Program-made: the position numbers and the translations under genes | The notes under the pieces: generated by a model | Seen by the model: the letters and a program-made list of their open reading frames with translations, nothing else | Database searches by the model: none | What the model was told of the DNA's origin: nothing | Part shown: positions 10,987 through 30,917 of the stretch, in pieces | Position numbering within the stretch: position 1 is the stretch's first letter | Layout: every line of letters starts with the position of its first letter | Source of the DNA: Candidatus Hydrogenedentota bacterium | Lineage (GTDB): Bacteria > Hydrogenedentota > Hydrogenedentia > Hydrogenedentales > SLHB01 | Reading direction: 5' to 3' | NCBI GenBank assembly: GCA_019695095.1 | Contig: JAIBAQ010000054.1 | Span: 1-33,469 of the forward strand | Length of the DNA: 33,469 bases

Positions 10987-11056
10987 GGTTCTACACGGTC
11001 TCTGCCAAGGTTATTTTCCTTCGCCGGACATAATTCGCCCTATGGACGGACTGGGG

Positions 11057-11086
11057 AATATAGCATACGCCGGAAACCCGCTGCAA
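11057..11086 (-). promoter_or_regulatory. Candidate sigma-70 promoter of the ffh operon
   Basis: On the minus strand TTGCAG (11086-11081) and TATATT (11062-11057) are 18 bases apart. The -10 box matches 5 of 6 consensus positions and the -35 box matches 3 of 6. The start would be near 11050, leaving a leader of about 64 bases. Confidence 0.4.
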
Positions 11087-11152
11087 CTCGCGGTCGGCAA
11101 CGCTTCTGAGGCCATATTCCCGGCGCAGCATAGCCGCAATCAAATGAGACTC

Positions 11153-11682
11153 AACCACGGGTGAACACCGATGAACTCCGATAAACGAACCCAATTAGCG
11201 CACTGTTCTCGTGGCCGCTGGCACCCAACCTACTTGCAGTCTGCGGGATACCCCACGCCGCGCTCGGCGATCGCGGCGCTACCGGGGCCGCGTTTCGGGA
11301 AGTAGGCTCATGCGGGGTCTGTTGCGTTTGGCCCCACACTACGCTCGCACATTAAACGTCAGTCGCGTTCTTTGTAGCGCCCGGCTTCCACGCCGGGCTT
11401 CCCCAGACGAGGGATGCCGCACCCTGTGGCGCAGCCGCCCTCGGCGCGATTCAGTAGCGTAGCGCTCGCCGAGCGCGGCGCGGATAACCGAGGTCTCTGT
11501 TGTGGCTCCTAAGAAGGGGACGTTATAGGTTGCTTTCGTCCTTACAGGACTCACGTTGGTTGGGGGCGGTTACCTGGGGTTTCGATTCGCGTCGGTGACG
11601 CGAATCTTACCCCAGGCTGGAGTATTTCGCGCTTGCAGCGCTCTGGAGTATCGAGTCAAGTCGTCGGTGTTCACCCGTGGTT
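11153..11682. repeat. Gene-free block flanked by 22-base inverted repeats
   Basis: The arms 11153-11174 (AACCACGGGTGAACACCGAT...) and 11661-11682 (its complement) match at 21 of 22 positions and enclose 530 bases. The left arm is part of a decaying 10-base periodic motif (CACGGGTGAA, CACCGATGAA, CTCCGATAAA). A second inverted pair lies inside: CGCCGCGCTCGGCGA near 11255-11269 and its exact complement near 11467-11481. A 7-base hairpin GCCCGGC ttccac GCCGGGC sits at 11379-11398. No protein-coding gene is convincing. The block may be a composite of dispersed repeats or a MITE-like unit. Confidence 0.55.
11573..11616. repeat. Long hairpin inside the repeat block
   Basis: CCTGGGGT (11573-11580) pairs with ACCCCAGG (11609-11616). 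Inside them GATTCGCGTC (11584-11593) pairs perfectly with GACGCGAATC (11597-11606) around a GGT loop. The total is 18 paired bases with a small internal loop. No U-tract follows, so it is unlikely to be a terminator. Confidence 0.65.
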
Positions 11683-11748
11683 AAGTCACTTTTGGTTGCG
11701 GCTATGCCGTGCCAGGCTGTTATGTTTTGCGCCTTGCGGCGCGCAGGA
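11612..11748 (+). repeat. Two direct copies of a CCAGGCTG / GCGC-hairpin repeat, 100 bases apart
   Basis: The units at 11612-11647 and 11712-11748 start with the same CCAGGCTG and share the layout T-rich spacer, GCGC(C)-TTGC-(G)GCGC hairpin, then C(T/A)GGA. They begin exactly 100 bases apart. Sequences of this form occur scattered in many environmental bacterial genomes (from memory); their role is not known to me. Confidence 0.45.
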
Positions 11749-12083
11749 CCTGGTAAGAAAACACTACACCAGCCATCCGGTGCAGCGTTCCGCCTTCTGC
11801 TCTGTTTAAGCCAGATTCTTCGCTACGCTCAGAATGACAAGTGGCAGTCTGTTTCTCACGCGCCGTCCCTCAACCACTGCGGTGGGCATAGCGACATCTC
11901 CGCAACACCATACGAAATGTGCCGCGCTATCTCCTTAGGTCATCCTGAGCGAAGCGAAGGATCTGGCTTAAGAACGATTCCTTGTAGTACCAGATGCTTT
12001 ACTGCCGCTCCTAAGAAACAAGCCGATCCTCTGGCATGTGATGCTCCTTCCGAGCGGTCGTTAGGGTGGGATCCGGGGTGGTA
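11749..12083. other. Remainder of the gene-free block downstream of the kdp operon
   Basis: Apart from the inverted repeat pair I see no gene, RNA or clear terminator here. The string GCTCCTAAGAA at 12007-12017 also occurs at 11505-11515, another sign that the whole 11-12 kb block is built of repeated pieces. Confidence 0.5.
11811..11966. repeat. Inverted pair of a 28-base dispersed repeat
   Basis: The sequence at 11811-11838, complemented, matches 11939-11966 (containing CTGAGCGAAGCGAAGGAT) at 25 of 28 positions. Each copy is itself a short hairpin (ATCCT/AGGAT around GAGCGAAGCGA). When translated this repeat gives the PERSEGS-type peptides often misannotated as genes. The two copies face each other across 100 bases. 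Confidence 0.6.
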
Positions 12084-13745
12084 TCAGTCCTCGGGATAGG
12101 TCAATGCCTCCAACAACGCGGCTGACTCTTTCGCCGTTCGCGCAGCGCGCGCAAATCGCCGGTCCTTAGCGGTCCGGCTGGCCAAAGCCAATAATTCCAC
12201 CTGCAATGCGGGCGTATCCGCAGGACACAGCGTCAGAAACACAAGCTCAATGGGTTTGCCCGTGGACTCATCTGAGACGCCGCCGTGCGTAATGCCAAGC
12301 GCCAGAATGGGCTGTTGAAGACCGTCAATGCGAGCGTGCGGAAATGCAACGCCCTCGTTAAAGAAGGTGCTTCCTTGGCTTTCCCGTTCGACAATTCGCG
12401 CGAAGACCGATTCCGTGGAAACTCCTACGCTCTCAACGTCAATCGCCTCCACCAATTTTCGGAGAAGGATGTCCTTCGCGACCGGTTCCTCCCATATCAC
12501 AACTCCGTTTGTGGCAAGGAGAGACCGTAAGCGCGCTGCGTCGGTTTCCACCATTCGAGTCTGACCTTCGTGGCCGCCCTTTGCAGACTCAACCGAAGCG
12601 GACTCCTGTCGCTCGGGCGCGCGCCGTGTATCCACTACCACAACGGTCGTGTCTCGGACCTTGTCCGTGAGCCGTTCGAGTATGTCTTTTCTGCCAAAGA
12701 CTCGTTTCCACCATGGCAACGGCGCGGGTGTGCCTATAACGATATGGCCGACGCGGTATTCTTTCACGAAACTGCCGATGGCGCTGACAACATCCCCGCC
12801 TTTGTACGTGAACACGATGGCGCCCAATTGCTTGGCCAGGGTCAGCGTGCCGGAGAGTTCGCGCTGCGTTTCCGCGTCGATGCGTGTCGCCGATTCGCGC
12901 GGTGTCTGCACGTACACCGCGTACCAATTCCGGTTGAGGCGGCCGGCAAGACGCGATCCGTACCGTAGCAGCCGTTCACTTTGCGGACCGCGCGAACTCA
13001 GGCACACCATGACCTGATCGGGGCTGACCGACTTCTCCTCGTCCGTGGGTTGCCTGCGGCGCGAATCAATCTGAGCCGCCAGTTCGCGCAGCGCCAACTC
13101 GCGCAATTGCTCCAAATTGGCCGGAGCGAAGAAGTTCGCCAACGCGCCTTCGACACGTTCCCGGGGATACACTTTGCCCTCGGCGAGCCGCTTGCGAAGG
13201 TCTTCGGATGACACGTCCACGTTTACAATCTGGTCGGCTTCGCTCAGCACGCTGTCGGGGATGCGTTCGCGCACGCGAATCCCGGTGGCGTGTTCCACCG
13301 CGTCGTAAAGGCTCTCGAGATGTTGCACGTTCAGCGTGGAGATGACGTGGATACCGTGCGAGAGAATGTCCTGCACGTCTTCGTATCGTTTGGCGTTCCG
13401 GCTGCCCGGAACATTCGTGTGTGCCAACTCATCGATGAGCACCACGGTTGGATTTCGCGCGAGGATGAGGTTGACATCCATTTCCTCGACCGTGATACCC
13501 CGATACTCTTGCCGCATGCGCGGCAACACTTCCAGTCCGTCAAGCAAAGCCTGGGTGTCGGCGCGGCCGTGGGTCTCCACGTAACCCACAACCACGTCGA
13601 TGCCCTCATCCTTCATGCGGTGAGCGTCCTGCAGCATCTCGTATGTTTTACCGACGCCCGCGCAATAGCCGAGATAGACCTTCAGCCGCCCGCGCTGTGA
13701 GCGGCGAATCATGCGAAGGAAGCTGTCGGCTTTGTCGTTGCTCAT
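12084..13745 (-). CDS. kdpD: KdpD N-terminal/USP protein fused to a PTS EIIA domain, without kinase
   Basis: The 553-residue protein has three parts. Residues about 18-230 are the KdpD N-terminal domain with P-loop GYCAGVGKT (26-34), VGYVETHGRADT and Walker-B-like LIDELAHTNVPGS (D105, E106). Residues about 242-375 are the KdpD universal-stress-protein domain (VMVCLSSRG...SERLLRYGSRLAGRL, then WYAVYVQTP). Residues about 402-553 are not KdpD: they resemble the PTS EIIA type 2/EIIA-Ntr fold with FPHARIDG, whose H470 is the expected phospho-accepting histidine. The second conserved EIIA histidine aligns with Q515. The four KdpD membrane helices, GAF, HisKA and HATPase domains are all absent, so it cannot act as a sensor kinase. 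It starts 7 bases after kdpC and ends the operon. Likely a soluble regulator of Kdp. Confidence 0.88.
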   Translation of the reverse strand: MSNDKADSFLRMIRRSQRGRLKVYLGYCAGVGKTYEMLQDAHRMKDEGIDVVVGYVETHGRADTQALLDGLEVLPRMRQEYRGITVEEMDVNLILARNPTVVLIDELAHTNVPGSRNAKRYEDVQDILSHGIHVISTLNVQHLESLYDAVEHATGIRVRERIPDSVLSEADQIVNVDVSSEDLRKRLAEGKVYPRERVEGALANFFAPANLEQLRELALRELAAQIDSRRRQPTDEEKSVSPDQVMVCLSSRGPQSERLLRYGSRLAGRLNRNWYAVYVQTPRESATRIDAETQRELSGTLTLAKQLGAIVFTYKGGDVVSAIGSFVKEYRVGHIVIGTPAPLPWWKRVFGRKDILERLTDKVRDTTVVVVDTRRAPERQESASVESAKGGHEGQTRMVETDAARLRSLLATNGVVIWEEPVAKDILLRKLVEAIDVESVGVSTESVFARIVERESQGSTFFNEGVAFPHARIDGLQQPILALGITHGGVSDESTGKPIELVFLTLCPADTPALQVELLALASRTAKDRRFARAARTAKESAALLEALTYPED

Positions 13746-13752
13746 CGTACGG

Positions 13753-14334
13753 CTATCGCAGCGCGTCGAGCGCCAGGTTTAGCGTGACCACATTGACACG
13801 AGGTTCACCGAGAATTCCCAGTGTGCGCCCCTCAGTATATTCCGCAATAAGCGCGTTTACTCGCTCTTCGGGAATTCCGCGCGCATTCGCAACGCGCGTA
13901 CACTGAAGCTCGGCATTGCGCGGACTGATATGTGGATCGAGACCGGAACCCGATGCCGTGACCGCGTCGGCGGGCACGCACTCGCCGGGAGACAGACCGT
14001 TTTCTTCGCGGTAGGCGCGCACGCGCTCCTCCACCGAGTCAATCAGCTTGCCCGAAATAGGCCCCAGGTTCGATCCGCCCGAAGCGGACGCGTCATATCC
14101 TGTTCCCGCTGCCGAGGGTCTTGGATGAAAGTACGCGGGTTTCGTGAACGGCTGCGCAATGAGCGCGCTGCCCACTACGGCGCCGTCCTTCATCAAGAGC
14201 GAGCCGTTGGCCTGACTGGGAAACGCCGTCTGAGCAACGGCCCACACAGCGGCGGGATACACTCCGCAAAGTATCGCGGCGAGTGCCAGCGTCGCAACGG
14301 CCGCAGGCCGCAAATATTCGACAAGCGTATTCAT
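13753..14334 (-). CDS. kdpC: Potassium-transporting ATPase subunit C
   Basis: KdpC is the single-span subunit that stabilises the KdpFABC complex and helps ATP binding. The 193-residue protein has one N-terminal helix (about 9-32). The family sequences follow: QANGSLL, GSALIAQPF, YFHPRPSAAG, ASGGSNLGP (the conserved S-x-G-S-N-x-G-P), GLDPHISPRNAELQ and RVANARG, then the Glu-rich C-terminus LGEPRVNVVTLNLALD. It is intact. It lies 11 bases after kdpB and 7 bases before the KdpD-like gene. Confidence 0.97.
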   Translation of the reverse strand: MNTLVEYLRPAAVATLALAAILCGVYPAAVWAVAQTAFPSQANGSLLMKDGAVVGSALIAQPFTKPAYFHPRPSAAGTGYDASASGGSNLGPISGKLIDSVEERVRAYREENGLSPGECVPADAVTASGSGLDPHISPRNAELQCTRVANARGIPEERVNALIAEYTEGRTLGILGEPRVNVVTLNLALDALR

Positions 14335-16381: not shown

Positions 16382-18100
16382 CTAGAACGTGGTCTTCGTT
16401 GCGACCATCGTGAAATGTTCAAGCACAGGACCGAGTGACAACGCGGGGAGAAAGGTCAACGCACCCACTAGAACCACCGTCGCGACAAGCAGGACAGCAA
16501 ACGTCGGACCCGAGACAGGGAAGCTGCCTTTGCCAGTGGGAGAGAGTCGCTTGCGTGCCATGTTGCCTGCCAGCGCGAGTATGGGAACGATCATCGCGAA
16601 CCGTCCCAGTAACATGGCGATGCCCAGGGTCGTGTTGTACCAGTTCGTGTTTGCGTTCAACCCGGCAAACGCGCTGCCGTTGTTGCCTGTTGCCGACGAG
16701 TAGGCATACAGGATTTCGGTGAGGCCGTGGGGCCCTTCGTTCGCCCGGCTTGAGACACCCCAATCGCTGACGCTGGCCCACGCCGAGAAGCCGAGTATTG
16801 AGAAGGTCAAAATGAGAATGGCCAGAGCCGCGGCCTTCACGTCGAACGCATCGATTTTCTTACCCAAGTATTCCGGCGTGCGACCGATCATCAGTCCCGC
16901 AAGAAATACGGTCAGTATGACGAAGACCAGCATCCCATACAGACCTGCCCCGACACCGCCAAACACGACCTCGCCGAGTTGGATGTTGAGCAGGGGCGCC
17001 AAGCCGCCAAGTGGCGTGAACGAATCGTGCATCGAATTCACCGCGCCACACGACGCTGCTGTCGTGATCGTCGCGAACAACGCCGAATTGAACACGCCAA
17101 ACCGGACTTCCTTGCCTTCCATGTTGCCGGGTGTAGCCTCCACGCCAAGTGCGTGCAGGCGCGGGTTTCCGTGGGCTTCCGCGGCCCAGCAGGCCAGCGC
17201 GCCCGCAATGAACAACGCGGCCATTGCGCTCCAGACGGCCCACCCGTGGCGCTGATCCTTGGTTGCGCAACCCAGGTAGTACGTTAATCCGCTCGGGATG
17301 AGGAAGATCGAAATCATCTGCACGAAGTTCGAGAGCGGCGTTGAATTCTCGAATGGATGAGCGGCATTGGCATTGAAGAAACCGCCGCCGTTGGTTCCGA
17401 GCATCTTGATCGCCACTTGCGATGCAACCGGCCCTTGCGCAATCGTCTGCGTCGTCTCTCCCTCGATGGTAGACGCAGTTGTATACCCGCCAAAGTTTTG
17501 AAGAGTGCCCTGGCTCACAAGAAACAACGCAAACACGAAACTGAGCGGCAAAAGCAGATGCAGATTGATGCGCACGAGATCGACCCAGAAGTTCCCCACG
17601 GTGCTTGTTTCGCGCCGCGCAATTCCGCGTACCAGCGCCGCCGCAATGGCAATACCCACCGCAGCCGACGCGAAATTGTGAAACGTCAGCGCTACCATCT
17701 GCGAGAGATACGACATCGTGGTCTCGCCCGCGTAGGCCTGCCAGTTCGTGTTGGTCGTGAAGCTCACCGCCGTGTTGAAAGCCAGCGCAGACGGAACGGC
17801 GGGGAGTTTCTGTGGGTTCAAGGGAAGTAGGTGCTGCAATCGCAGAATCGCGTAAGTGAATAGTAGCGACACCGCGCTGAATGCGAGCATCGAGAACGCA
17901 TAGCGCTGCCACGTCTGCTCGTCCGAGCGCTTGACGTTCATGAGTCGCAGCAAGCCTCGCTCGACCGGATCGACGAGTCGGCTGACGGGCGTGCGCCGTT
18001 CGGGATCGAGCACGTGAACGAGATAGAGTCCAACCGGTTTCGTGAGTGCCAGCAGCACTCCAAGAAACAGGGCAAATTGTATCCAGCCATAGATGTCCAT
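16382..18100 (-). CDS. kdpA: Potassium-transporting ATPase subunit A (channel-like)
   Basis: KdpA is the K+-selective, ion-channel-like subunit related to Trk/Ktr. The four pore loops are visible: [40 protein letters not shown] and [19 protein letters not shown]. About ten hydrophobic helices surround them. I use the ATG at 18100 (572 residues, [14 protein letters not shown]...), which has AAGGA about 11 bases upstream. A TTG at 18112 would add MLSV but has no usable spacing. It starts 15 bases after kdpF. Confidence 0.97.
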
Positions 18101-18201: not shown

Positions 18202-18285
18202 CTATAGCCTTTCGCAAAGCCGGACATAACCGGCGCACAACACGAAGAACACAGCGACAACTCCGACAACAACCAGGTCCTGCAT
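18202..18285 (-). CDS. 27-residue membrane peptide of the kdp operon
   Basis: The frame starts at an ATG sharing its A with the kinase stop (TAATG). GGAG lies 8 bases upstream. It encodes 27 residues: a hydrophobic helix (MQDLVVVGVVAVFFVL) followed by CAGYVRLCERL. The ending with Cys, Arg and Glu differs from KdpF, which follows only 2 bases downstream. I recall similar short peptides ending in (Y/V)-V-R-x-C-(E/D)-R-(L/I) before kdpF/kdpA in other phyla, so it may be a second small Kdp component. No function is established that I know of. Spacing, start signal and membrane character all support a real gene. Confidence 0.75.
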   Translation of the reverse strand: MQDLVVVGVVAVFFVLCAGYVRLCERL

Positions 18286-20126
18286 TACGAGGTCTCCATC
18301 GATTCGGGCGCGTCGGCGCGCCGCAAGGTGAATGTGAACACGCTGCCGGCCCCGTCTCCGCTGCTAGCAGTCACCGTGCCGCCATGCGCCACTACGATTT
18401 CCTTGACGATCGCCAAACCGAGGCCCACGCCCGATGATTTGTCTTGCCCCGGTACGCGGAAGAACGGATCGAAGATGCGGCTTCGGTACTCTTCGGGAAT
18501 TCCGCAGCCCGTGTCCGAAATAGAGAACGTGACGAATTCCGCATCGCAACGAGCAGCAATGGTTACGGCGCCTCCGGGCATCGTGTACTTCAGCGCGTTA
18601 GTGATCAGGTTGTCGAAAACGTGCGCGATACGGGTTGCGTCGGCCAGTGCCTCGGGAAGGTCCACCGCCACATTCGCGACGAGCGAAATGCCACGATCTT
18701 TGGCCGGCCCCGCGTGGCGTTCGATGGCGTTGAACGCCAATTCCGACGGAGCGATCGGGCGCAAGTCAAGCAAGGCCCTGCCCGATTCGATACGGCTGAT
18801 ATCGAGCAAGTCTTCGAGGATTGCCGACAACCGGCTGCCCTCGTCGCGCGCTGCCAACAGGAGGTCGGTCTGCTTTGGATTCAGGGGGCCTACCTTCTCC
18901 TCCAACAGCAAGTGCACGGCCATGCGTATCGCGGTGAGCGGTGTCCTTAGTTGGTGGGATACCGTTGAAATGACTCCGCGTTTCAGTTCCACCTGCTGAC
19001 GCAACTGCGTGACGTCTTCCAGGACCATAATGACGCCGTTCACGCCTTCGTCGTGCTCGATCATCGGCACACCCTTGGGACGGTAGAAACGTTCCTCGCC
19101 GTTGACGAAGAACTGATGACCGCTGTCTTTGGCCGAACCTTGCACGGCGCGGCCCTCGCGCAGGACCTCATGAAATGTGTCTGCAATCCACGGATACATG
19201 CACTGTGAAATCAGCGTATGTGGCGTGAGTCCAAACGTGTGCTGCGCGCTGGGCGTCGCAATTTCCACTTCGCCGGCCTCGTTGACGACTGCAATGGCTT
19301 CGGGCAGGCAACTGAAGGCTTCCTGTGTCGCGCGCTGAACCCGAATGTACTGAAGCCGTTCGCTGCGCCGGAATTCGCGCAGCTTCGACGCCATCTCGTT
19401 AAACGCGGCCGTAAGCTGACCAAGTTCGTCGTTGGACACAGTGGGCACGACCACCTCGAGCGTGCCGTGTTGGATGTCGCGCACGGAATCGGTGAGGAGT
19501 TGGATTGGGCGCAGCACCCAGCGCCGCACAAGCACGATGCTCACGACGGCAATCAGAAATCCGGCGAGCAAGTACATATACATCTGATGGCGCGCCGCCG
19601 CCGCGCGTAAACCGGCCGCGCGATTCGCCGACGCCATGTTCTCCTGGTTGAGCGTCAGGATCGTATCGGCCAGCGACTTGATCTGTTGGAAGAGCGGCAG
19701 GATTTCGTCAAAGTAGGTCAAGCGCCGCTGGTCCATGCTCAGGTTCCCATTGCGAACCGTCTCTATCTTCTGGACGTATTCGGCAAAGTACTTTTGAATT
19801 TGTGCGGCCTTCTCGCCTTCTCCGGGCAACGTAACATTCGAAATCTCGGTTTGAAGCGCCTTCTCAAACACGATCCGATTGGCGTCGATGAGCGCGTTGC
19901 CCTCGTCCTCGTCGCCAAGCATCGTGAATAGCGCGCCGCTGTCCATCCGCTCCAGCGCTTCCTTCATGTCGCCGCACGCAATGACGCTTCGATAATTCTC
20001 TTTCATGATTACGTCGATTGCGCGCCCCAACACATGAAGTTGCGAAATGCTGACGCCGCCAATCACCACCGTGACGAGCAGCAATGCCCCGAACCCGATA
20101 CCAAGTTTCTGTCGTAAACCAATCAT
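18285..20126 (-). CDS. Membrane sensor histidine kinase controlling kdp (KinB-like layout)
   Basis: The 613 residues show a transmembrane helix (9-29), a periplasmic helical-bundle sensor (about 32-180), a second helix (about 181-201), HAMP (about 202-255), PAS (about 262-375), HisKA with H391 in STVSHQLRTPLTAIR, and HATPase with N box FDNLITNALKY, G1 DTGCGI, F box FDPFFRV and G2 GVGLGLAI. It is not related to KdpD. The layout matches KinB-type kinases that pair with NtrC-type regulators such as AlgB. The partner is the activator 206 bases upstream. GGAAG lies 8 bases before the ATG, and a sigma-54-like promoter lies just upstream. Its stop overlaps the next gene by one base. Confidence 0.92.
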   Translation of the reverse strand: MIGLRQKLGIGFGALLLVTVVIGGVSISQLHVLGRAIDVIMKENYRSVIACGDMKEALERMDSGALFTMLGDEDEGNALIDANRIVFEKALQTEISNVTLPGEGEKAAQIQKYFAEYVQKIETVRNGNLSMDQRRLTYFDEILPLFQQIKSLADTILTLNQENMASANRAAGLRAAAARHQMYMYLLAGFLIAVVSIVLVRRWVLRPIQLLTDSVRDIQHGTLEVVVPTVSNDELGQLTAAFNEMASKLREFRRSERLQYIRVQRATQEAFSCLPEAIAVVNEAGEVEIATPSAQHTFGLTPHTLISQCMYPWIADTFHEVLREGRAVQGSAKDSGHQFFVNGEERFYRPKGVPMIEHDEGVNGVIMVLEDVTQLRQQVELKRGVISTVSHQLRTPLTAIRMAVHLLLEEKVGPLNPKQTDLLLAARDEGSRLSAILEDLLDISRIESGRALLDLRPIAPSELAFNAIERHAGPAKDRGISLVANVAVDLPEALADATRIAHVFDNLITNALKYTMPGGAVTIAARCDAEFVTFSISDTGCGIPEEYRSRIFDPFFRVPGQDKSSGVGLGLAIVKEIVVAHGGTVTASSGDGAGSVFTFTLRRADAPESMETS

Positions 20127-20153
20127 GATGTGTACTTCCTTGCCTGAGAAGAA

Positions 20154-20169
20154 ACAAGACTGGTGCCAA
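20154..20169 (-). promoter_or_regulatory. Candidate sigma-54 (-24/-12) promoter of the kinase-kdp operon
   Basis: On the minus strand TTGGCAC (20169-20163) is followed after 5 bases (CAGTC) by TTGTT (starting at 20157). This gives the GG-N10-G spacing of sigma-54 promoters. The -24 box matches consensus perfectly. The -12 box has GT instead of GC, which may weaken it. The transcript would start about 17 bases before the kinase ATG. The gene next upstream is a sigma-54 activator. Confidence 0.6.
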
Positions 20170-20332: not shown

Positions 20333-21685
20333 CTACGTGATACCGTACTGTTTGCGACGGCGCCACAGCGTTGCTTGATCGATGCCCAGAATCTCCGCCG
20401 CCGCCTGAAGCGAACTCGTCGTGGCCAGCACCCGCCGGATGTGCTGTTCCTCCAGTTCTGCAAGCGAGATACGCTCGCCAATTCGGGGTTGGCTTTCGCG
20501 TGAAACCATGGAATCAGGCAGATGCTCAATACCCACCGAATCGCCAGTACACACGATGGTGGCGCGTTCGATGACGTTTCGGAGCTCTCGCAGATTGCCC
20601 GGCCACGGATACTCGGTCAAAACACGCTCGGCTTCGTCCGTAAACCCAAGGAAGCCCCGGTGTGTTGCCGTGCCGAAGAAGGCGAGTAATCGTTTGGCAA
20701 TGGGGACGATGTCCGCCGTTCGTTCGCGCAGCGGTGGGATTTCCAACTGAAACACATTCAGCCGGTAGTATAGATCCTCGCGGAATCGCCCATCCGAGAC
20801 CGCCAGCGCCAAATCGGTATTCGTTGCAGCAATGATGCGCACATCGGCCCGCCGTGTTCTGACGTCGCCGATGCTCTCATACTCCTTATCCTGAATAAAT
20901 CGCAGTAGTTTTGGCTGCAACGGCAGCGGCAGTTCCCCGATTTCGTCAAGAAACAGGGTCCCTCCTTCACACGCCATCACTCTTCCGGGATTGTCGCGCA
21001 CCGCACCGGTAAACGAACCGCGGACATGTCCGAATAACTCACTCTCAAGCAACTCCCCGGACAGCGACGGGCACGACACAACGCCGAAGGGCTTGCGTGC
21101 CCGGCGGCTCCAAGCATGAATGACTTTCGCAAGGACCGTCTTACCAGTCCCGCTTTCGCCCAGGATCAGGACAGAAGCCTCGCTCTGGGCTACCTGCCGC
21201 GCCAACTCGAGCGCGCGCTGCATAACAGGGCTGGTGCTGGTAAGGTCCACATCCGGGCTTGCGCCCGCAAGGTCGTGCTGAACTTGCTGCAGCCTTAATT
21301 CAAGAGAGCGCATTTCCGACATCTTACGCACGGCAATCAGGACTTGGGGCGGCGTAAAGGGCTTCGCAATGTAGTCGATTGCCCCCCGCCGCATGGCCTC
21401 CACCGCGGTTTCTATCGATGCATACGCCGTGATGACGACAATCTTCAGCCAAGGCGCGAGCGTCAGCAGCTCGGGAACAAGATCCAGTCCACTGGTTGTG
21501 CCCAGACGCACATCGACGAACGCCAACGCAAAACTCTGCCGTGTTACGGCCTGGATGGCCTCCGACGCGCTCCCCACCGATACGACGGAATGGCCCTCCG
21601 CCTCCAGGCACACGGCCAGCGTCTTTCGGATGTTGGCCTCGTCATCGACGATCAAAATTGAGAGTGCGGCGTTCTCGGTGTCCAT
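20333..21685 (-). CDS. NtrC-type sigma-54-dependent response regulator
   Basis: I use the ATG at 21685 (450 residues), with GGAG 9 bases upstream. The ATG at 21694 has no usable site. The receiver domain (about 8-120) has the acidic pair in ILIVDDE, phospho-acceptor D58 in FVDVRLG, then VITAYAS and the conserved Lys in AKPF. The AAA+ domain has Walker A GESGTGKT (176-183), the sigma-54 contact loop GSFTGA (223-228; usual GAFTGA), Walker [13 protein letters not shown] and the arginine finger region [12 protein letters not shown]. The C-terminal Fis-type helix-turn-helix is [19 protein letters not shown]. It should activate the promoter at 20154-20169 when phosphorylated by the neighbouring kinase. 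The S for A in the loop occurs in functional relatives. Confidence 0.94.
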
Positions 21686-21690
21686 GGGAA

Positions 21691-22122
21691 TCATCTCCGG
21701 CGCATGCGGGCGCGCGGCGATACGCTCGCCTTCACCGGCCGCACGTCGGGAAAGGCGTCGCGGATCAACAGCAACTCAGGTTCGCCCGATTCGGGCAACA
21801 CGACCGTCACCACGTCGAACCGGAAGTAGACGTCCTCCGGCTCGTTGTCACTCAGCCAGCGGTGGGCAGCACTACGAATGTGGCGCTGTTTCTTCGGAGT
21901 GATATTGGCTTCCGGCGCGGCGTACCCATCGTCACGGCGCGTCTTGACCTCCACGAATGCAATCGTGTCGTCTTCCCGCGCGATGATGTCGAGCTCGTAA
22001 CGCCCTACTTCCACGTTTCGGCCCAGAATGATGAACCCTTCCTGTTTGAGAAGCCTGACAGCCAAATCTTCGCCCTGTGCGCCCAACGGCTTGGGTTTAT
22101 GGCGTCGAAAGGGCCAGATCAC
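21691..22122 (-). CDS. yraN: YraN/UPF0102 family nuclease-like protein
   Basis: The family belongs to the restriction-endonuclease-like fold; its cellular role is unclear. The GTG at 22122 overlaps the scpA stop (GTGA), giving 143 residues starting MIWPFRRHKPK. Motifs are GAQGEDLAVRLLKQEGF, then RNVEVGRYELDIIARE, where Y replaces the usual G of G-E-[IL]-D but E and D are kept, and FVEVKTRR with the catalytic-type E-x-K. The Arg-rich C-terminus is longer than usual. Its stop lies 5 bases before the activator ATG, so the three genes scpA, yraN and the response regulator are probably one transcript. Confidence 0.88.
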   Translation of the reverse strand: MIWPFRRHKPKPLGAQGEDLAVRLLKQEGFIILGRNVEVGRYELDIIAREDDTIAFVEVKTRRDDGYAAPEANITPKKQRHIRSAAHRWLSDNEPEDVYFRFDVVTVVLPESGEPELLLIRDAFPDVRPVKASVSPRARMRRR

Positions 22123-23093: not shown

Positions 23094-24707
23094 CTACGGC
23101 GTAGGCGCCGGTTCGGAAACGGGCGGAGCAGGCACGCACATCAGCTTGAACTCCGCATCGATATAGTCATTCCCGAACGACGCCAGGGCCGTGATTTCTT
23201 GCACACCTGCCGCGGACGCAGTCCATTCCGCGGCTGCCTGCTCAAACGACTCGTTCGTGTAGCCCCGCAATCCGTTGAAGGCAAGAAACTGGCGTCCTGC
23301 CTCAACCAACTGCTCCACACATGGACGCGGTGTTATGCGTGCATACACGTTGCCCTTTTCCGGCAACGGCGCGGCGGTTGCCGGGTTTTTCAGCAGGCTT
23401 TCTGCCACGGTACGGCTCGAGCTCACCAGGACGTCGTCTCCGTACACGGCCACGGTCGGCTCGATAGATGGTCCGCCCAGCAACGGCAACCGGACGACAT
23501 TCGTCGCGGAATCCACCCGTGGATACATGTCCCACGGCATGGTGCCCGGCGGCGGTGGAGGAATTGCCTTGAAGAGCTCCGGCAATGCCGCGACCTGTGC
23601 GTCCAGTGTTGCTGCCAACAGCGGTGCCGGCATCATCTCGTTGGAGTCGATCCCCACACAACTCAGGCGTATCCCTGGACCCATGGGACCGAAGAGAGCC
23701 GTTGCGAGCTGCGGCAGTCCCGGAGTCTCGCCGGGTTTTGTCTCTTCCCAGGTCTGCCACTTCGATGCATTAAAGAAGGGACTGTCGAAAGCGTGACCTG
23801 CCTCTATCCAGACCTCTTTGAGAGGTTTCCCGAAATCAAGCGATACTTGGACGATTCCCTCGGGTGGGGCCGTCAATGTGCGAGGCGACACGCCCTGAAC
23901 CAAGTTCGCGAAGCGCTCGCGCGCGGCTGCATTGAAAATCCCGCGGAACTTTGTATGGGCGCTCGACTCGTCGATGCGCATCGCAAAGGCCAACGATTGA
24001 AACGTCGAGCCCAAGGGATCATCCGGATGCAGCAGTACGACACCGCGCAGGTCTTCCGTGCCCGATCGGGTCAAGTCCGACAAGGTCGATTCGTCGATAG
24101 CGGCTTCCTTGGTCAGCGTCAGCGCGCGTATCAGCTCATCTCGAGACGGACTGAAGAGCAGAATCCGGCCTCGTACGGCATAGTACATGCCCGATTGGGT
24201 CATCTTGCGTAAGCGCAGGCCACCAGCGTAGTCGCTTTCGATGCCGGGCATGAACCAATGAAGACGTTCAATCAAGCTGCCAATACGGGACATCTTCGTA
24301 AGGCCGATGACGTCGCTAAACGACGAGATGTCATTTCCGAGCAAATAGAGTTGGCCGCGGATCAGGTTGTTGAGCACCCATTCCGGAGGACCTGCATTGC
24401 GCTGGATCGGCTCGATGGCCTTGGCGAGGCCAAACGACGGCGGCACCGAGTTCCAAACGCGTGACTGAACAATTCGGTTCCTGTTGTTTACAGGATCGGC
24501 CAGCACAAGACTGAACCGCTGCCCCGCAGGCATGCAACGCGTAATGTCGAAGCTATCGCGTGTGATCCAAAGCAAAACCACGGCAATAATTATCGCCAAT
24601 GCGGCGAGCGAACCCCGCCACGGGAATGCCGCGCCGGCACTGTGTCTGCGCCGCCGTTGAAGAGGGCGTCCCTGGCCCGAGTAATTGCGAACTACGTCTT
24701 CGCTCAT
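23094..24707 (-). CDS. Unknown single-pass membrane protein, translationally coupled to the ceramidase fusion
   Basis: The 537-residue protein has a basic cytoplasmic N-terminus (about 1-31), one transmembrane helix (about 32-49) and a large extracytoplasmic part. That part holds alternating strands and helices with phrases such as MYYAVRGRILLFSPSRDELIRAL and VAVYGDDVLVSSSRTVAESLL, which look like two related halves, similar in style to DUF3352-type proteins. This is only a resemblance. It ends in a Pro-rich tail with no catalytic motif visible. Its ATG overlaps the stop of the upstream ceramidase fusion (ATGA), so the two are likely made together and may act together at the cell surface. Confidence 0.75.
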   Translation of the reverse strand: MSEDVVRNYSGQGRPLQRRRRHSAGAAFPWRGSLAALAIIIAVVLLWITRDSFDITRCMPAGQRFSLVLADPVNNRNRIVQSRVWNSVPPSFGLAKAIEPIQRNAGPPEWVLNNLIRGQLYLLGNDISSFSDVIGLTKMSRIGSLIERLHWFMPGIESDYAGGLRLRKMTQSGMYYAVRGRILLFSPSRDELIRALTLTKEAAIDESTLSDLTRSGTEDLRGVVLLHPDDPLGSTFQSLAFAMRIDESSAHTKFRGIFNAAARERFANLVQGVSPRTLTAPPEGIVQVSLDFGKPLKEVWIEAGHAFDSPFFNASKWQTWEETKPGETPGLPQLATALFGPMGPGIRLSCVGIDSNEMMPAPLLAATLDAQVAALPELFKAIPPPPPGTMPWDMYPRVDSATNVVRLPLLGGPSIEPTVAVYGDDVLVSSSRTVAESLLKNPATAAPLPEKGNVYARITPRPCVEQLVEAGRQFLAFNGLRGYTNESFEQAAAEWTASAAGVQEITALASFGNDYIDAEFKLMCVPAPPVSEPAPTP

Positions 24708-27037
24708 CGGCTCTGCTTCCCAAATCCGTATTCGATCGGTTTGCCCAATTCGCCGGACGCGTCCGGAAACGCCACTCGCATACGCTTGGTCTTGGGCACA
24801 AAAACGACGCTATATCGCGTGTCCGTATTGCAGATCTGCTCCATGCCCGTGCTTCCTGGGTCCGCATCACGCAAATACGTGGCGATCTCGTCTCCATCGA
24901 GAATGCGTTCCGACTCCAGCAGAGTAGACAACCGCGCATAGCGCTTCGCCGCGGTCGGGTCCGCACCCGCTGTCGCGGGGTCCATTCCGAGTAACAGTCC
25001 ATCGTACGGCTCGCGTATGGTAATGCTGGCTCCGAATTCGACCACGCACGCCTTACCCGACGCGTCGACAAGCATCACGTGGTACCCCCGGACGTGTACT
25101 GCGGCTTGAAGTGCGGCACTTGCCGCTGTCACGTCCGGTGCGGAAGCGAGCACCCCGCGCAACACAAATTCGACAGGCGGGCCATCGAGCGTAGGCTCGC
25201 CCAAGTGGTCTACGCGCTCGACACTTACCGCAAGTCCAGCCTCGTTCATGCCCGTGAAGACGCCCAAAGACCAGGGGAAGGCGACATATAGAAAACGAAG
25301 TCCGGCCGGCGGCCTCACATCGAATACGAACGGAGCCTCGGCACGCGTCCAGTCGAAGTTTCGCCCAGCCAGAATGTCGTCAGCCCCTGCCCGGTCTCCC
25401 ACGGCAGCAAACATCGTGCAGAACGGCGACCGGTACATGGGAGCCCGGTCCGTCTTGGCCGCGAAAGTCGGTGCGCACTGTGTCAGCCAGACGGCATCGA
25501 ATGGCATCCCTGCACCTTCCGCTACGCCCTCCATTTCCGCCAGCACGTCAGACGATAACCCTGCCAACATCGGGCGGGCTCCGATACCCAGACGCGGCAA
25601 CGCCAACGGCGTCAGATTCATGAAGCGAGGAGCCATGCCCCAAAGGCCATCCTTGGGTATCCATTCTCCGCTGTCGCACGGTTTGACAACCGAATCTTGA
25701 AACGTCGCTTGTATCGCCTCGCGAAATGCAGCTCCCCTGCGGTATCCCGATTCGAAAGGATCGCCGGAGACGACGATGGGCGTTCCAGCGCTCATCTCCT
25801 CGAGCTTCCACGGCTCGATGACCGGCCGCTCCGGCATCGCCGTTCCACGCGTCATTAATGCGTCGAACTCGCGATAGAACCACGAATCGATTCGAGGACC
25901 GTAGAACGTCATCGCGCTTTCGTAGGTCAGCGTTGGGTACAGATCGCGGGGTACGAAATACATGAGGTAATCGTTCGCGAGCCCCACGGTGAATTGCGCC
26001 CTGTACCCGCGCTCCAGCGCCAATCTGCGCAACTCAAGACCAATCTCCACGCACGCTTCGCCAGGCACGAAACTAAGGAGAAGATCGCCGATTTCCAGCG
26101 TTCGCAATTGGGTTGTTGAAGGCACAAAATCGGAAGCGAGCGTGGGAGGGAGGTTCGGCGTAGATGATCCGACGTGAAGCTTTGCTTCGCCGCACGTGAT
26201 AGTCCCCGCTACCTCCATTGCTTTGGCCGCCAATTGCGTGCCGATGGCTTCCGTCGCTTGCCATCCGGACTTGCCTTCGAGAGTCGCGGGCCGCTGGTTG
26301 CCCTCCGCGCCGTTCAAAAACATCGCGACACAACTGCCACCTGCTACGCGTTCCACCTCGTTGTAGTAGTAACCGGGATAGTCCGCGCTGATTGACATCA
26401 TGTCCTCGCCGCTCACCGTTGTCGGGTGCGCGGCAAAATTCGTCGCCAACGCGATAATATTCCCATCCGAATCGTCCACTCGGATGACGCCAATCTGCGG
26501 GTCCGTCGGACCATTCTCAACACGGCGGTTAACGCTCAGGCCCGTTTGCGTCGTTACGCCGAACCCGATCGTCGCACGCTTGCGATTCGCAATAGCTTGA
26601 TTCATCGCCTCCGCGAATCGCTGGGCCGTGGCCTCCAGCACCTCGGGCACGAAACGTCCCGAGACGCACCGCACGACCATGTTGCGGATCATGCCGCCTT
26701 GCGCGCTGTGGGTGTGCGTGGCCGTCAGGAGGATGTTCTCTTTCGGCACTTCCGCGGGCGCCAGCTCAAGCACGCGATCCCGCAGTTCCCTGCTGATCAT
26801 GCACAGGTCCGAGTTTACGAGCAGGACGGGGGTTTCGTCATCGTCGAGAAACAGGCACCGTACCCACACCGGATCATGAACAGATAGTGCGCCACGCCCC
26901 AAGCGGTCGTAATAACCGTTGAGCGGTGTATCGAGCGGCGGAGTGATCTCCACCTTGGCGGCCCCCGCCTCCAAGGCCTGTACTTGAAGAACAGACAGGA
27001 GTCCCAGTAGTAGTGACAAAGAAATGCGTTGAAGCAC
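24704..27037 (-). CDS. Secreted fusion of neutral-ceramidase and C45/Ntn-hydrolase domains
   Basis: The 777 residues start at a GTG 2 bases after the enoyl-CoA hydratase stop and carry a signal peptide (cleavage near A21). Residues about 22-400 match the neutral/alkaline non-lysosomal ceramidase family: AGAAKVEITPP, THTHSA (H108, H110 as zinc ligands), ATNFAAHPTT (H204) and LNGAEGNQRP. Residues about 415-777 look like a C45-type autoproteolytic acyltransferase/amidase: SGDPFESGYRRGAA, candidate N-terminal nucleophile C540 in SPFCTMFAAV, then AGRNFDW (558-563). Both domains would cleave N-acyl amide bonds, so the enzyme may deacylate ceramide-like or other N-acyl substrates in the periplasm. 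The substrate is not known. The ceramidase C-terminal domain seems shortened. Confidence 0.82.
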   Translation of the reverse strand: MLQRISLSLLLGLLSVLQVQALEAGAAKVEITPPLDTPLNGYYDRLGRGALSVHDPVWVRCLFLDDDETPVLLVNSDLCMISRELRDRVLELAPAEVPKENILLTATHTHSAQGGMIRNMVVRCVSGRFVPEVLEATAQRFAEAMNQAIANRKRATIGFGVTTQTGLSVNRRVENGPTDPQIGVIRVDDSDGNIIALATNFAAHPTTVSGEDMMSISADYPGYYYNEVERVAGGSCVAMFLNGAEGNQRPATLEGKSGWQATEAIGTQLAAKAMEVAGTITCGEAKLHVGSSTPNLPPTLASDFVPSTTQLRTLEIGDLLLSFVPGEACVEIGLELRRLALERGYRAQFTVGLANDYLMYFVPRDLYPTLTYESAMTFYGPRIDSWFYREFDALMTRGTAMPERPVIEPWKLEEMSAGTPIVVSGDPFESGYRRGAAFREAIQATFQDSVVKPCDSGEWIPKDGLWGMAPRFMNLTPLALPRLGIGARPMLAGLSSDVLAEMEGVAEGAGMPFDAVWLTQCAPTFAAKTDRAPMYRSPFCTMFAAVGDRAGADDILAGRNFDWTRAEAPFVFDVRPPAGLRFLYVAFPWSLGVFTGMNEAGLAVSVERVDHLGEPTLDGPPVEFVLRGVLASAPDVTAASAALQAAVHVRGYHVMLVDASGKACVVEFGASITIREPYDGLLLGMDPATAGADPTAAKRYARLSTLLESERILDGDEIATYLRDADPGSTGMEQICNTDTRYSVVFVPKTKRMRVAFPDASGELGKPIEYGFGKQSR

Positions 27038-28922: not shown

Positions 28923-30917
28923 ATGCACGAATCTGACTTTATGGCTGCAATCGTTCTGCTGTTCGGCACGGCACTCGTCGTTGCGTGGCTCTTTCGCATC
29001 CTCCGCGCACCCTCAATCATAGGCTTTCTCATCACCGGCCTCATAATGGGGCCATCGGGGCTTTACCTTTTCGACCCCTCGGACGTGAGTTCCATCAGTG
29101 AGATTGGCCTTGTGCTCCTGCTGTTTATCGTCGGACTTGAACTAAACCCGGGTCCGCTCTTCCGGTTGGGCAAGAACTTGCTTCTCGCAACTGGTCTGCA
29201 GATCGGCGTCACAGCCGCCCTTGCCGCCGCCGTATTTGAGTTTGGCTCTGACAATTCGATCGTCACCTCTGGGTTGATTGGGGGCCTTGTCGCCCTGAGC
29301 AGCACCGCCATTGTTCTCAAGCAGATCAGCGAACGTGGCGAGACCGATTCCGTATCGGGGATGATTACCATTGGAATACTACTCCTCCAAGACGTAATCG
29401 TCATCGCGTTCATGCTCTTCCTGCCAATGCTGGCCGTGAAGTCCGGTGGCGATTGGCACGGCGCCGCGGCGCGCTCGCTGATAGGGCTGGCAGTCATGGG
29501 TGCGCTGGCCATTGGCGGACGCAAGACGTTACCTGGCCTCATGAACGAGCTTTCCCGGCGCGGCGGACCTGAACTGATGACACTCTTTGCCGTATCGATG
29601 GCATGCGGCGGCGCGTGGCTGGCTTCGCTCGCGGGCTGGAGTCCCGCATTGGGCGCTTGTGTCGCGGGCTTGCTGCTCGCGGAGGCCGACGCCCGGCACC
29701 AACTCGTGGCCGACATTCACCCTTTCCGCGACGTATTCAACGCCGTGTTCTTCATCTCGCTGGGTATGATGGCGAACATTAACTTGGTCATCGACAGTCT
29801 GGGTCTCATTCTCGTGGCCGTTCTCGTGACCTTGATTGCCAAATCGCTCATAACCACCGCAGCCGTGCGCGTCGCCGGATGGCCAATTCGTCCCGCAATC
29901 CAAGTCGGACTGGGCTTGTGCACGGTCAGCGAATTCGGCTATGTGGTCGCCTTTGAAGCCAGCAAGCTCAACCTCATGCCGTCTTCACTCTTCAACGGAA
30001 TCATGGTGTACGCCATCGGCACGATGATCATCGGCGCAGTGCTCGTACCTGTTTCCGGCAGAGTCGCGGCATGGGTTGCCGGGCGTCTTCATGATGACGC
30101 GCCTCCCCCGGATGCGGCTCCCGTGGCCCACGGAAAGCACCACGTCATCATCATCGGATTTGGCGTCAGTGGCCAGAATCTCGCCCGCGTGCTCAAGGCA
30201 ACTCACGTCAACGTCATTCTTGTGGAGATGAGCCCGCGATCGATTCAGATCGCCAAAGACACCCAAACCCCGTATATCGTTGGCGACGCCACCCGGCGGA
30301 GCATTCTCGAACACGCCGGGATTGCCACGGCCCACGCGATGGTCGTGGCCACAAACGACCGCCAAGCGACTCGCGCAATCGTATCGGTTGCCCGTTCGAT
30401 GCGCCCGGATCTCTATATCCTTGCGCGATGCCGTTTCGTGTCGGATCTCGACGAAATCTACCGGCTCGGCGCGAGTCAAGTTATCCCGGAGGATTTTGAG
30501 ACTTCTATCGAAATCGCCGCACATGTCCTCAAAGAAATGGACATCCCCGACAACATTGTCGAGGCGCAAATCGCCGCGGTCCGTGCCGGCCGGTACGGTA
30601 TGCTGCGCGGCAAGTCCACCGACCGTACCGCACAGCAAGAGCTCATGAAGGTGTTGCAGACCACCGCGACGCGCACCTTCTACCTTGAAGAGAATCATTG
30701 GGGCAACGGCAAGACCATCGGCGAACTCAATCTTCGCGCGCGCACCGGCGTATTGATCATCGCCGTCGTGCGCAACGGCGTACCTGCCACCAATCCGGGC
30801 GTAGACACGCGGGTGCAGTCGGGCGATGTGCTCGTGCTCGTCGGCGCCCATGCGCAACTCGAATCGGCCAAAGCCGTGCTTCAAGAAGGCGATCATCTCG
30901 ATTCCTCAGGCTCATGA
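28923..30917 (+). CDS. CPA2-family cation/H+ antiporter with RCK domains (KefB/YbaL type)
   Basis: The 664 residues begin with about 12 membrane helices of the CPA2 exchanger fold (about 5-385), including LLLFIVGLELNP, ALSSTAIVLKQ and GILLLQDVIVI, whose Asp corresponds to the ion-binding region. A cytoplasmic RCK-N domain (about 407-525) has the nucleotide-binding loop GFGVSG (412-417), an acidic residue at the end of strand 2 (LVEM) and VGDATRRSILEHAGI. An RCK-C domain (about 565-655) includes LRARTGVLIIAVVRNG and LVLVGAH. The family exports K+ in exchange for H+ under ligand control. GAGGAG precedes the ATG by 5 bases. It may balance the Kdp importer encoded 10 kb away. Confidence 0.92.
   Translation: MHESDFMAAIVLLFGTALVVAWLFRILRAPSIIGFLITGLIMGPSGLYLFDPSDVSSISEIGLVLLLFIVGLELNPGPLFRLGKNLLLATGLQIGVTAALAAAVFEFGSDNSIVTSGLIGGLVALSSTAIVLKQISERGETDSVSGMITIGILLLQDVIVIAFMLFLPMLAVKSGGDWHGAAARSLIGLAVMGALAIGGRKTLPGLMNELSRRGGPELMTLFAVSMACGGAWLASLAGWSPALGACVAGLLLAEADARHQLVADIHPFRDVFNAVFFISLGMMANINLVIDSLGLILVAVLVTLIAKSLITTAAVRVAGWPIRPAIQVGLGLCTVSEFGYVVAFEASKLNLMPSSLFNGIMVYAIGTMIIGAVLVPVSGRVAAWVAGRLHDDAPPPDAAPVAHGKHHVIIIGFGVSGQNLARVLKATHVNVILVEMSPRSIQIAKDTQTPYIVGDATRRSILEHAGIATAHAMVVATNDRQATRAIVSVARSMRPDLYILARCRFVSDLDEIYRLGASQVIPEDFETSIEIAAHVLKEMDIPDNIVEAQIAAVRAGRYGMLRGKSTDRTAQQELMKVLQTTATRTFYLEENHWGNGKTIGELNLRARTGVLIIAVVRNGVPATNPGVDTRVQSGDVLVLVGAHAQLESAKAVLQEGDHLDSSGS

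What the first reader, a model, noticed from the sequence alone, without database searches (positions are those of the whole stretch)
12084..13745. KdpD without a kinase, fused to a PTS EIIA domain
The last gene of the kdp operon keeps the KdpD N-terminal ATP-binding and USP domains. The membrane, GAF and kinase domains are replaced with an EIIA-Ntr/EIIA type 2 domain carrying FPHARIDG (H470). In E. coli, free EIIA-Ntr is known to bind KdpD and stimulate it. Here the two partners would be one protein, which suggests direct phosphotransferase input into potassium uptake, perhaps acting on the Kdp complex itself since there is no kinase part.
Basis: partly seen in the sequence, partly recalled or inferred. 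Interest (0 to 1): 0.8.

Follow-up and report, generated by a model that had tools for sequence, protein, structure and literature searches.

The report
Potassium-pump switch fused to PTS domain
In several bacterial phyla, the small protein thought to switch off the high-affinity potassium pump is fused to a phosphate-accepting domain of the sugar-PTS type, which would let the cell's energy or carbon state adjust potassium uptake directly.

Summary
The gene lies on the minus strand (13745 to 12084, 553 aa) and ends a kdpFABC operon. It joins a KdpD N-terminal domain (PF02702, E=1.5e-94), a USP domain and an EIIA-Ntr-like domain (PF00359, E=5.8e-15). The transmembrane, GAF and histidine-kinase parts are absent. 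It is no misassembly: at least 50 distinct homologues with the same architecture occur in Hydrogenedentota, Desulfobacterota, Acidobacteriota/Aminicenantes and Krumholzibacteriota. H470 is kept in 53/53 proteins examined.

The interpretation needs two corrections. First, 'without a kinase' is half right: the retained domain is the one shown in E. coli to be an atypical serine kinase that inhibits the pump by phosphorylating KdpB Ser162 (PMC11018627), and its catalytic residues are invariant here. Second, the locus carries its own histidine kinase and NtrC-type regulator, with a conserved sigma-54-like promoter, in place of KdpDE.

Best reading: a soluble serine-kinase brake on KdpFABC that gained an EIIA input domain, presumably phosphorylated by HPr; transcription is handled by the separate two-component system. 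KdpD/USP short forms and PtsN-KdpD binding are known. I found no description of the fusion in the open-access papers searched. Function is inferred, untested.

The parts
12084..13745 (-). kdpD:EIIA fusion gene, 553 aa
13068..13697 (-). KdpD domain (aa 17-226), predicted atypical serine kinase
   Evidence: PF02702 E=1.5e-94; 2r8r TM 0.93
13644..13670 (-). Walker A GYCAGVGKT (aa 26-34)
   Evidence: G26, K33, T34 invariant
13428..13433 (-). Walker B D105-E106, equivalent to E. coli D109/E110
   Evidence: invariant in 53 fused proteins; E. coli numbering by alignment with L100
12630..13019 (-). USP-like domain (aa 243-372)
   Evidence: 7ji4 TM 0.83; Pfam Usp only sub-threshold in a relative
12534..12620 (-). 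variable, probably disordered linker (aa 376-404)
   Evidence: pLDDT <50; 13% mean identity
12102..12533 (-). EIIA-Ntr-like domain (aa 405-548)
   Evidence: PF00359 E=5.8e-15; 2a0j TM 0.83
12336..12338 (-). H470 codon, predicted phospho-acceptor
   Evidence: His in 53/53; aligns with the PtsN active-site His
13753..14334 (-). kdpC
   Evidence: PF02669
14346..16367 (-). kdpB, with [11 protein letters not shown] (Ser162-equivalent)
   Evidence: TIGR01497; motif
16382..18100 (-). kdpA (ATG at 18100)
   Evidence: PF03814; start codon
18116..18199 (-). kdpF (MFDVVVGLVCLAITAYLAAVLVRPEKF)
   Evidence: assigned by position, size and general knowledge of KdpF
18202..18285 (-). second small membrane-peptide ORF
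18285..20126 (-). histidine kinase (4HB-HAMP-PAS-HisKA-HATPase)
   Evidence: orthologous sensor part in most fused loci
20153..20168 (-). sigma-54-like promoter TGGCACCAGTCTTGTT
   Evidence: 12.5 of 15 points in the window; such a site in 27/30 loci
20333..21694 (-). NtrC-type sigma-54 response regulator

Best explanation
The protein is a soluble, histidine-kinase-less KdpD. Its N-terminal domain is a serine kinase that inhibits the pump by phosphorylating KdpB at the Ser of TGES, and a C-terminal EIIA domain, phosphorylated on H470 by the cell's HPr, tunes that activity. The USP domain gives a second input, possibly c-di-AMP. Transcription of the operon is handled separately by the neighbouring histidine kinase and NtrC-type regulator at a sigma-54 promoter. 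Shown here: architecture, conservation, operon, promoter-like site, presence of EI, HPr, diadenylate cyclase and RpoN in the genome. Shown elsewhere for other KdpDs: serine kinase activity, and c-di-AMP stimulation of a short KdpD. Inferred: that this protein has that activity, that HPr phosphorylates H470, and that the phosphorylation state changes the serine kinase. The direction of the effect is unknown.
For: The residues shown by mutation in E. coli to be needed for KdpB phosphorylation are kept, apart from W39, which is Tyr in 46, Trp in 5 and Cys in 2 of 53 (PMC11018627). KdpB keeps [11 protein letters not shown] in all 40 fused loci where that stretch is present. The gene sits in the kdp operon in the window and in other loci with enough flank. 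H470, T460, E464, P469, R472 are invariant and R454 is kept in 52/53, while the EIIA domain as a whole is only 44% identical between members against 74% for KdpD: selection on the phospho-acceptor pocket. HPr plus EI are adjacent in the own genome; HPr is in all 12 fused Hydrogenedentota genomes and a good match is in 53 of 56 other fused genomes. Diadenylate cyclase is in the own genome and in 33 of 36 fused genomes of other groups. S251 and Y278, at the same spacing as the S. aureus c-di-AMP residues S244/Y271, are kept in 52/53 and 53/53. In Hydrogenedentota, fused forms go with the NtrC-type pair (8 of 9 loci with flank) and full-length KdpD goes with KdpE (3 of 3).
Against: No activity has been measured for any member. 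The EIIA was apparently lost in at least three close relatives; two of them still have the HK and sigma-54 regulator in the locus, so the EIIA is not indispensable. The USP motif is a hybrid: R261-x3-R265-x8-W274-x-A-x-Y is the E. coli-type motif, and three of the S. aureus positions differ, so c-di-AMP binding is uncertain. In five loci the histidine-kinase gene lies next to the fusion gene, which fits a histidine-kinase partner equally well. Diadenylate cyclase is common in the phylum anyway (59/68).
Confidence: 0.5

Rival explanations
1. Split-KdpD reading: the fusion protein is a cytoplasmic sensor subunit of the separate histidine kinase. The EIIA domain docks on that kinase's transmitter domain, as free PtsN does on E. 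coli KdpD, and so controls kdp transcription through the NtrC-type regulator.
For: The HK sensor part is orthologous across fused loci. The HK gene lies next to the fusion gene in five rearranged loci (L046, L048, L061, L062, L159) and next to kdpD in unfused sisters L154, L156, L157. PtsN binds the transmitter domain of E. coli KdpD. The D. vulgaris homologous operon was described as a split KdpD with its own regulator (PMC3333781).
Against: The HK has its own sensor, HAMP and PAS domains and is not KdpD-like. The serine-kinase residues would have no reason to be invariant if docking were the only role. In the commonest order the HK is at the other end of the operon.
Confidence: 0.27
2. Both at once: one soluble hub acts on KdpB through the serine kinase and on the histidine kinase through the EIIA.
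For: The combined evidence above; full-length E. coli KdpD itself has both outputs (PMC11018627).
Against: No direct evidence for either output in these organisms.
Confidence: 0.15
3. The EIIA is a passive passenger or a phosphate relay to an EIIB, without effect on potassium uptake.
For: EIIA domains are fused to other proteins in the phylum, so such fusions arise easily. Losses occur.
Against: Acceptor pocket invariant over several phyla. The position of the second active-site His of PtsN is Gln in 50/53, which from general PTS knowledge makes onward transfer less likely. No EIIB or EIIC was found among the neighbouring genes scanned.
Confidence: 0.06
4. Misassembly or annotation artefact joining kdpD to a neighbouring ptsN.
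For: The genome is a 405-contig draft.
Against: Same fusion in about 50 independent contigs and in 40 searched genomes, single open frames, one main clade.
Confidence: 0.01

Closest known systems
Short KdpD (KdpD+USP) serine kinase, e.g. Deinococcus geothermalis KdpD (PMC11018627)
   Same: Same N-terminal serine-kinase and USP domains, no TM, GAF or histidine kinase, no KdpE in the operon, genome has a diadenylate cyclase.
   Different: The EIIA domain; an NtrC-type two-component system in the locus. The paper's main text does not mention EIIA (0 occurrences).
Desulfovibrio vulgaris DVU3334-3339 kdp operon (PMC3333781)
   Same: Response regulator, separate HK, short KdpD+UspA protein and kdp genes; the regulator was mapped to its own operon.
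   Different: DVU3336 is described as K+ sensor plus UspA only. I could not examine its sequence.
Free PtsN (EIIA-Ntr) binding KdpD in E. coli, P. putida, rhizobia
   Same: An EIIA-Ntr-type protein connected to KdpD and potassium; in rhizobia ptsN2 lies in the kdpDE cluster (PMC13104625).
   Different: Separate proteins, and the KdpD parts bound (transmitter or GAF) are absent here.
NCBIfam NF038185 KdpD-like non-kinase potassium sensor
   Same: aa 6-342 align over positions 6-343 of 373 (361 bits).
   Different: Far below the model's cut-off of 550 bits; the 373-position model has no room for an EIIA.

Membership tests
KdpD N-terminal domain (atypical serine kinase) | PF02702 match and KdpD NTD fold | tested here: met
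   E=1.5e-94; 2r8r TM 0.93
KdpD N-terminal domain (atypical serine kinase) | Walker A G-x5-GKT, Walker B D-E, Arg equivalent to R190 | tested here: met
KdpD N-terminal domain (atypical serine kinase) | Trp equivalent to W39 | tested here: inconclusive
   Tyr here; Tyr 46, Trp 5, Cys 2 of 53. Mostly aromatic but not identical.
KdpD N-terminal domain (atypical serine kinase) | Phosphorylates KdpB Ser162 | not testable with these tools
   The substrate motif TGES is present; no assay
KdpD sensor histidine kinase | TM, GAF, HisKA and HATPase domains | tested here: not met
   No such matches; not filed as a KdpD histidine kinase
c-di-AMP-binding KdpD USP | SXS-X20-FTAXY motif of S. aureus KdpD | tested here: inconclusive
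   S251 and Y278 kept at the right spacing, but the second S, the F and the T become G253, W274, Y275; also fits the E. coli-type motif
PTS EIIA type 2 / EIIA-Ntr | PF00359 match, EIIA-Ntr fold and acceptor His | tested here: met
Canonical PtsN | Second active-site His of PtsN | tested here: not met
   Arg kept (R454, 52/53), but the second His is Gln515 in 50/53; a derived EIIA-Ntr-like domain, not a canonical PtsN; also below the PtsN model cut-offs
PTS EIIA type 2 / EIIA-Ntr | Phosphorylated by HPr or NPr | not testable with these tools
   HPr and EI genes present
Sigma-54-controlled operon | GG-N10-GC promoter and a sigma-54 activator next to it | tested here: inconclusive
   Activator present, RpoN in genome, 27/30 loci with a good site against 4% of random stretches; the window's own site has GT, not GC

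The most novel reading that the evidence does not exclude
H470 phosphorylation by HPr directly sets the activity of the serine kinase that shuts the KdpFABC pump, so that the PEP-driven phosphotransferase chain controls a P-type ATPase post-translationally through a single three-domain protein (serine kinase, nucleotide-sensing USP, EIIA).
Probability: 0.4. Interest if true: 0.78.

Novelty: new variant of a known kind. Interest (0 to 1): 0.6.

Why it matters
The link between the regulatory PTS and potassium is a long-standing and contested question, with discrepant models in E. coli (PMC13104625). Here evolution has tied an EIIA to the pump's predicted serine-kinase brake rather than to a histidine kinase. 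That gives a simple in vitro test (fusion protein plus KdpFABC, with or without EI, HPr, PEP and c-di-AMP) of whether PTS state controls potassium uptake post-translationally. Silberberg et al. used E. coli KdpFABC as the substrate for a D. geothermalis KdpD, so the assay exists.

Tried and rejected
Misassembly: rejected. A pure docking role for the KdpD domain: made unlikely by invariant catalytic residues. The idea that EIIA replaces c-di-AMP input because the cyclase is missing: rejected, the cyclase is present in most fused genomes. The idea that the fused EIIA is the genome's only EIIA: rejected, a free 169-aa EIIA and other matches exist. The idea that fused forms were gained several times: not needed; one gain followed by losses is simplest. 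L075 scored as unfused only because its contig ends inside the gene. L078, L092 and L128 carry the EIIA part in a shifted or broken frame. Literature searches for the fusion, for EIIA-cyclase fusions and for antiporter-EIIA fusions found nothing direct; the paper library is open access only, so absence is weak evidence.

Full report
What is there. The ORF at 12084..13745 is on the minus strand and encodes 553 aa. It matches Pfam KdpD at aa 17-226 (E=1.5e-94) and PTS_EIIA_2 at aa 427-548 (E=5.8e-15), with nothing of the KdpD membrane, GAF, HisKA or HATPase families. The AlphaFold2 model built on 46 homologues (mean pLDDT 72.9, pTM 0.48, so the domains are usable and their arrangement is not) matches, as three separate domains, the KdpD N-terminal domain 2r8r (TM 0.93 by target), the c-di-AMP-bound KdpD USP domain 7ji4 (0.83) and EIIA-Ntr structures 2a0j, 3urr, 1a6j (0.81-0.83). 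Residues 376-404 are a low-confidence, highly variable linker.

Surroundings. On the minus strand the order is NtrC-type response regulator (21694-20333), sigma-54-like site (20168-20153), histidine kinase (20126-18285), a small membrane-peptide ORF, kdpF, kdpA, kdpB, kdpC, then the fusion gene 7 bp after kdpC. There is no kdpE next to it. The histidine kinase has a four-helix sensor, HAMP, PAS, HisKA and HATPase domains and is not KdpD-like. PF02702 occurs only once in the genome.

It is a family. A scan of genome contigs and whole-genome searches gave the same architecture in 12 of 68 genomes of the own phylum (the other three KdpD carriers there have full-length KdpD), 21 of 395 sampled from the phylum of a Desulfobacteraceae genome (plus one frameshifted, G379), and 7 of 396 from the phylum of an Aminicenantes genome; a Krumholzibacteriia contig also has it. 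This disposes of misassembly. On trees of the KdpD-USP part, the first set gives one fused clade, its only unfused member (L075) being cut by its contig end. With more unfused relatives added, fused proteins still cluster (5 label changes against 25 in shuffles), with an unfused Desulfobacterota group (L124-L127) beside them and unfused L122, L123 and L138 nested inside; one of the five changes is the broken-frame L128. One gain and a few losses is the simplest reading; the method was the quick one and many inner branches are weak.

Conserved sites. Over 53 fused proteins (window included) Walker A K33/T34, Walker B D105/E106 and R186 are invariant; by alignment with E. coli KdpD these are K37/T38, D109/E110 and R190 (the E. 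coli ORF used starts 14 residues early). Those are residues whose mutation abolished or nearly abolished KdpB phosphorylation in Silberberg et al. 2024 (PMC11018627); the partner W39 is mostly Tyr here. KdpB carries [11 protein letters not shown] in all 40 fused loci where the stretch is present. In the EIIA domain H470, T460, E464, P469, R472 are invariant and R454 nearly so, while the domain as a whole is only 44% identical between members against 74% for KdpD and 70% for USP. The position of PtsN's second active-site His is Gln515 in 50 of 53. I read this as a regulatory EIIA that takes phosphate but need not pass it on; that last step is inference.

Inputs available. EI and HPr genes are adjacent in the own genome and HPr has the HARPA site. 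HPr is found in all 12 fused Hydrogenedentota genomes and as a good match in 53 of 56 other fused genomes (G470 has none, G210 and G238 only partial matches; draft genomes may account for this). A diadenylate cyclase is in the own genome and most fused genomes, but it is common in the phylum. The USP keeps S251 and Y278 at the spacing of the two S. aureus residues tested for c-di-AMP binding (PMC4686210), yet it also fits the E. coli-type motif, so c-di-AMP is possible, not shown.

Transcription. About 30 fused loci with enough flank carry the orthologous histidine kinase and sigma-54 regulator. In Hydrogenedentota, 8 of 9 fused loci with flank do, whereas the three full-length KdpD loci have an OmpR-type KdpE next door. 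A sigma-54-like site scoring at least 12.5 (of 15; the script printed '/16' by mistake) lies between the regulator and the next gene in 27 of 30 loci, against 4.3% of random 250-base stretches of the same loci. Some loci are near-copies. The window's own site is at the threshold and has GT instead of GC. RpoN is encoded in the genome. For D. vulgaris an equivalent operon was mapped as a target of its own regulator DVU3334 (PMC3333781), which is prior art for this part.

Mechanism. The best-supported reading is a pump brake: the KdpD domain phosphorylates KdpB at TGES-Ser and the EIIA, set by HPr, tunes it; the sign of the effect cannot be told. The main rival is a split KdpD in which the EIIA acts on the operon's histidine kinase. 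It is supported by five rearranged loci that place that kinase next to the fusion gene (L046, L048, L061, L062, L159) and by PtsN's known binding to the E. coli transmitter domain. Both may be true.

Novelty. Short KdpD-USP serine kinases, kdp operons with a separate HK and regulator, and PtsN-KdpD binding are all known. The fusion, its multi-phylum spread and the altered EIIA active site were not found in the papers searched, which cover open-access text only; domain databases probably list the architecture already. I class it as a new variant of a known kind.

Noticed in passing
L018:601-1947 (-) and L174:1573-2919 (+), genomes G066 and G064: Single 448-aa proteins with an N-terminal EIIA domain and a C-terminal diadenylate cyclase domain, a weak DacZ_P-like region between. 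This would tie the PTS to c-di-AMP synthesis in the same phylum.
   Followed up: partly
L017, L023, L026, L031 (G036, G003, G041, G051): Na+/H+ exchanger proteins with a C-terminal EIIA domain: another cation transporter joined to EIIA in the same phylum.
   Followed up: partly
window 12201-12203 (aa 515 of the fusion protein): The second active-site His of PtsN is Gln in 50 of 53 family members; three Hydrogenedentota members (L011, L012, L013) keep His.
   Followed up: yes
window 18202-18285 (-): A second small membrane-peptide ORF between the histidine kinase and kdpF, its start overlapping the histidine-kinase stop.
   Followed up: no
window 28923-30917 (+): Na+/H+ exchanger-type protein with TrkA_N and TrkA_C domains, Kef-like, about 7 kb from the kdp regulator.
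   Followed up: no
window 24704-27037 (-): 777-aa frame with a ceramidase-type N-terminal match and an acyl-transferase (AAT) C-terminal match.
   Followed up: no
L090:8902-11307 (+), Paenibacillus rhizosphaerae: 801-aa protein with two tandem KdpD-USP stretches.
   Followed up: no
window about 11000-12083: About 1.1 kb without clear genes downstream of the operon, with repeat-like text such as CATTCTGAGCGTAGCGAAGAATCTGGC and a similar inverted stretch.
   Followed up: no
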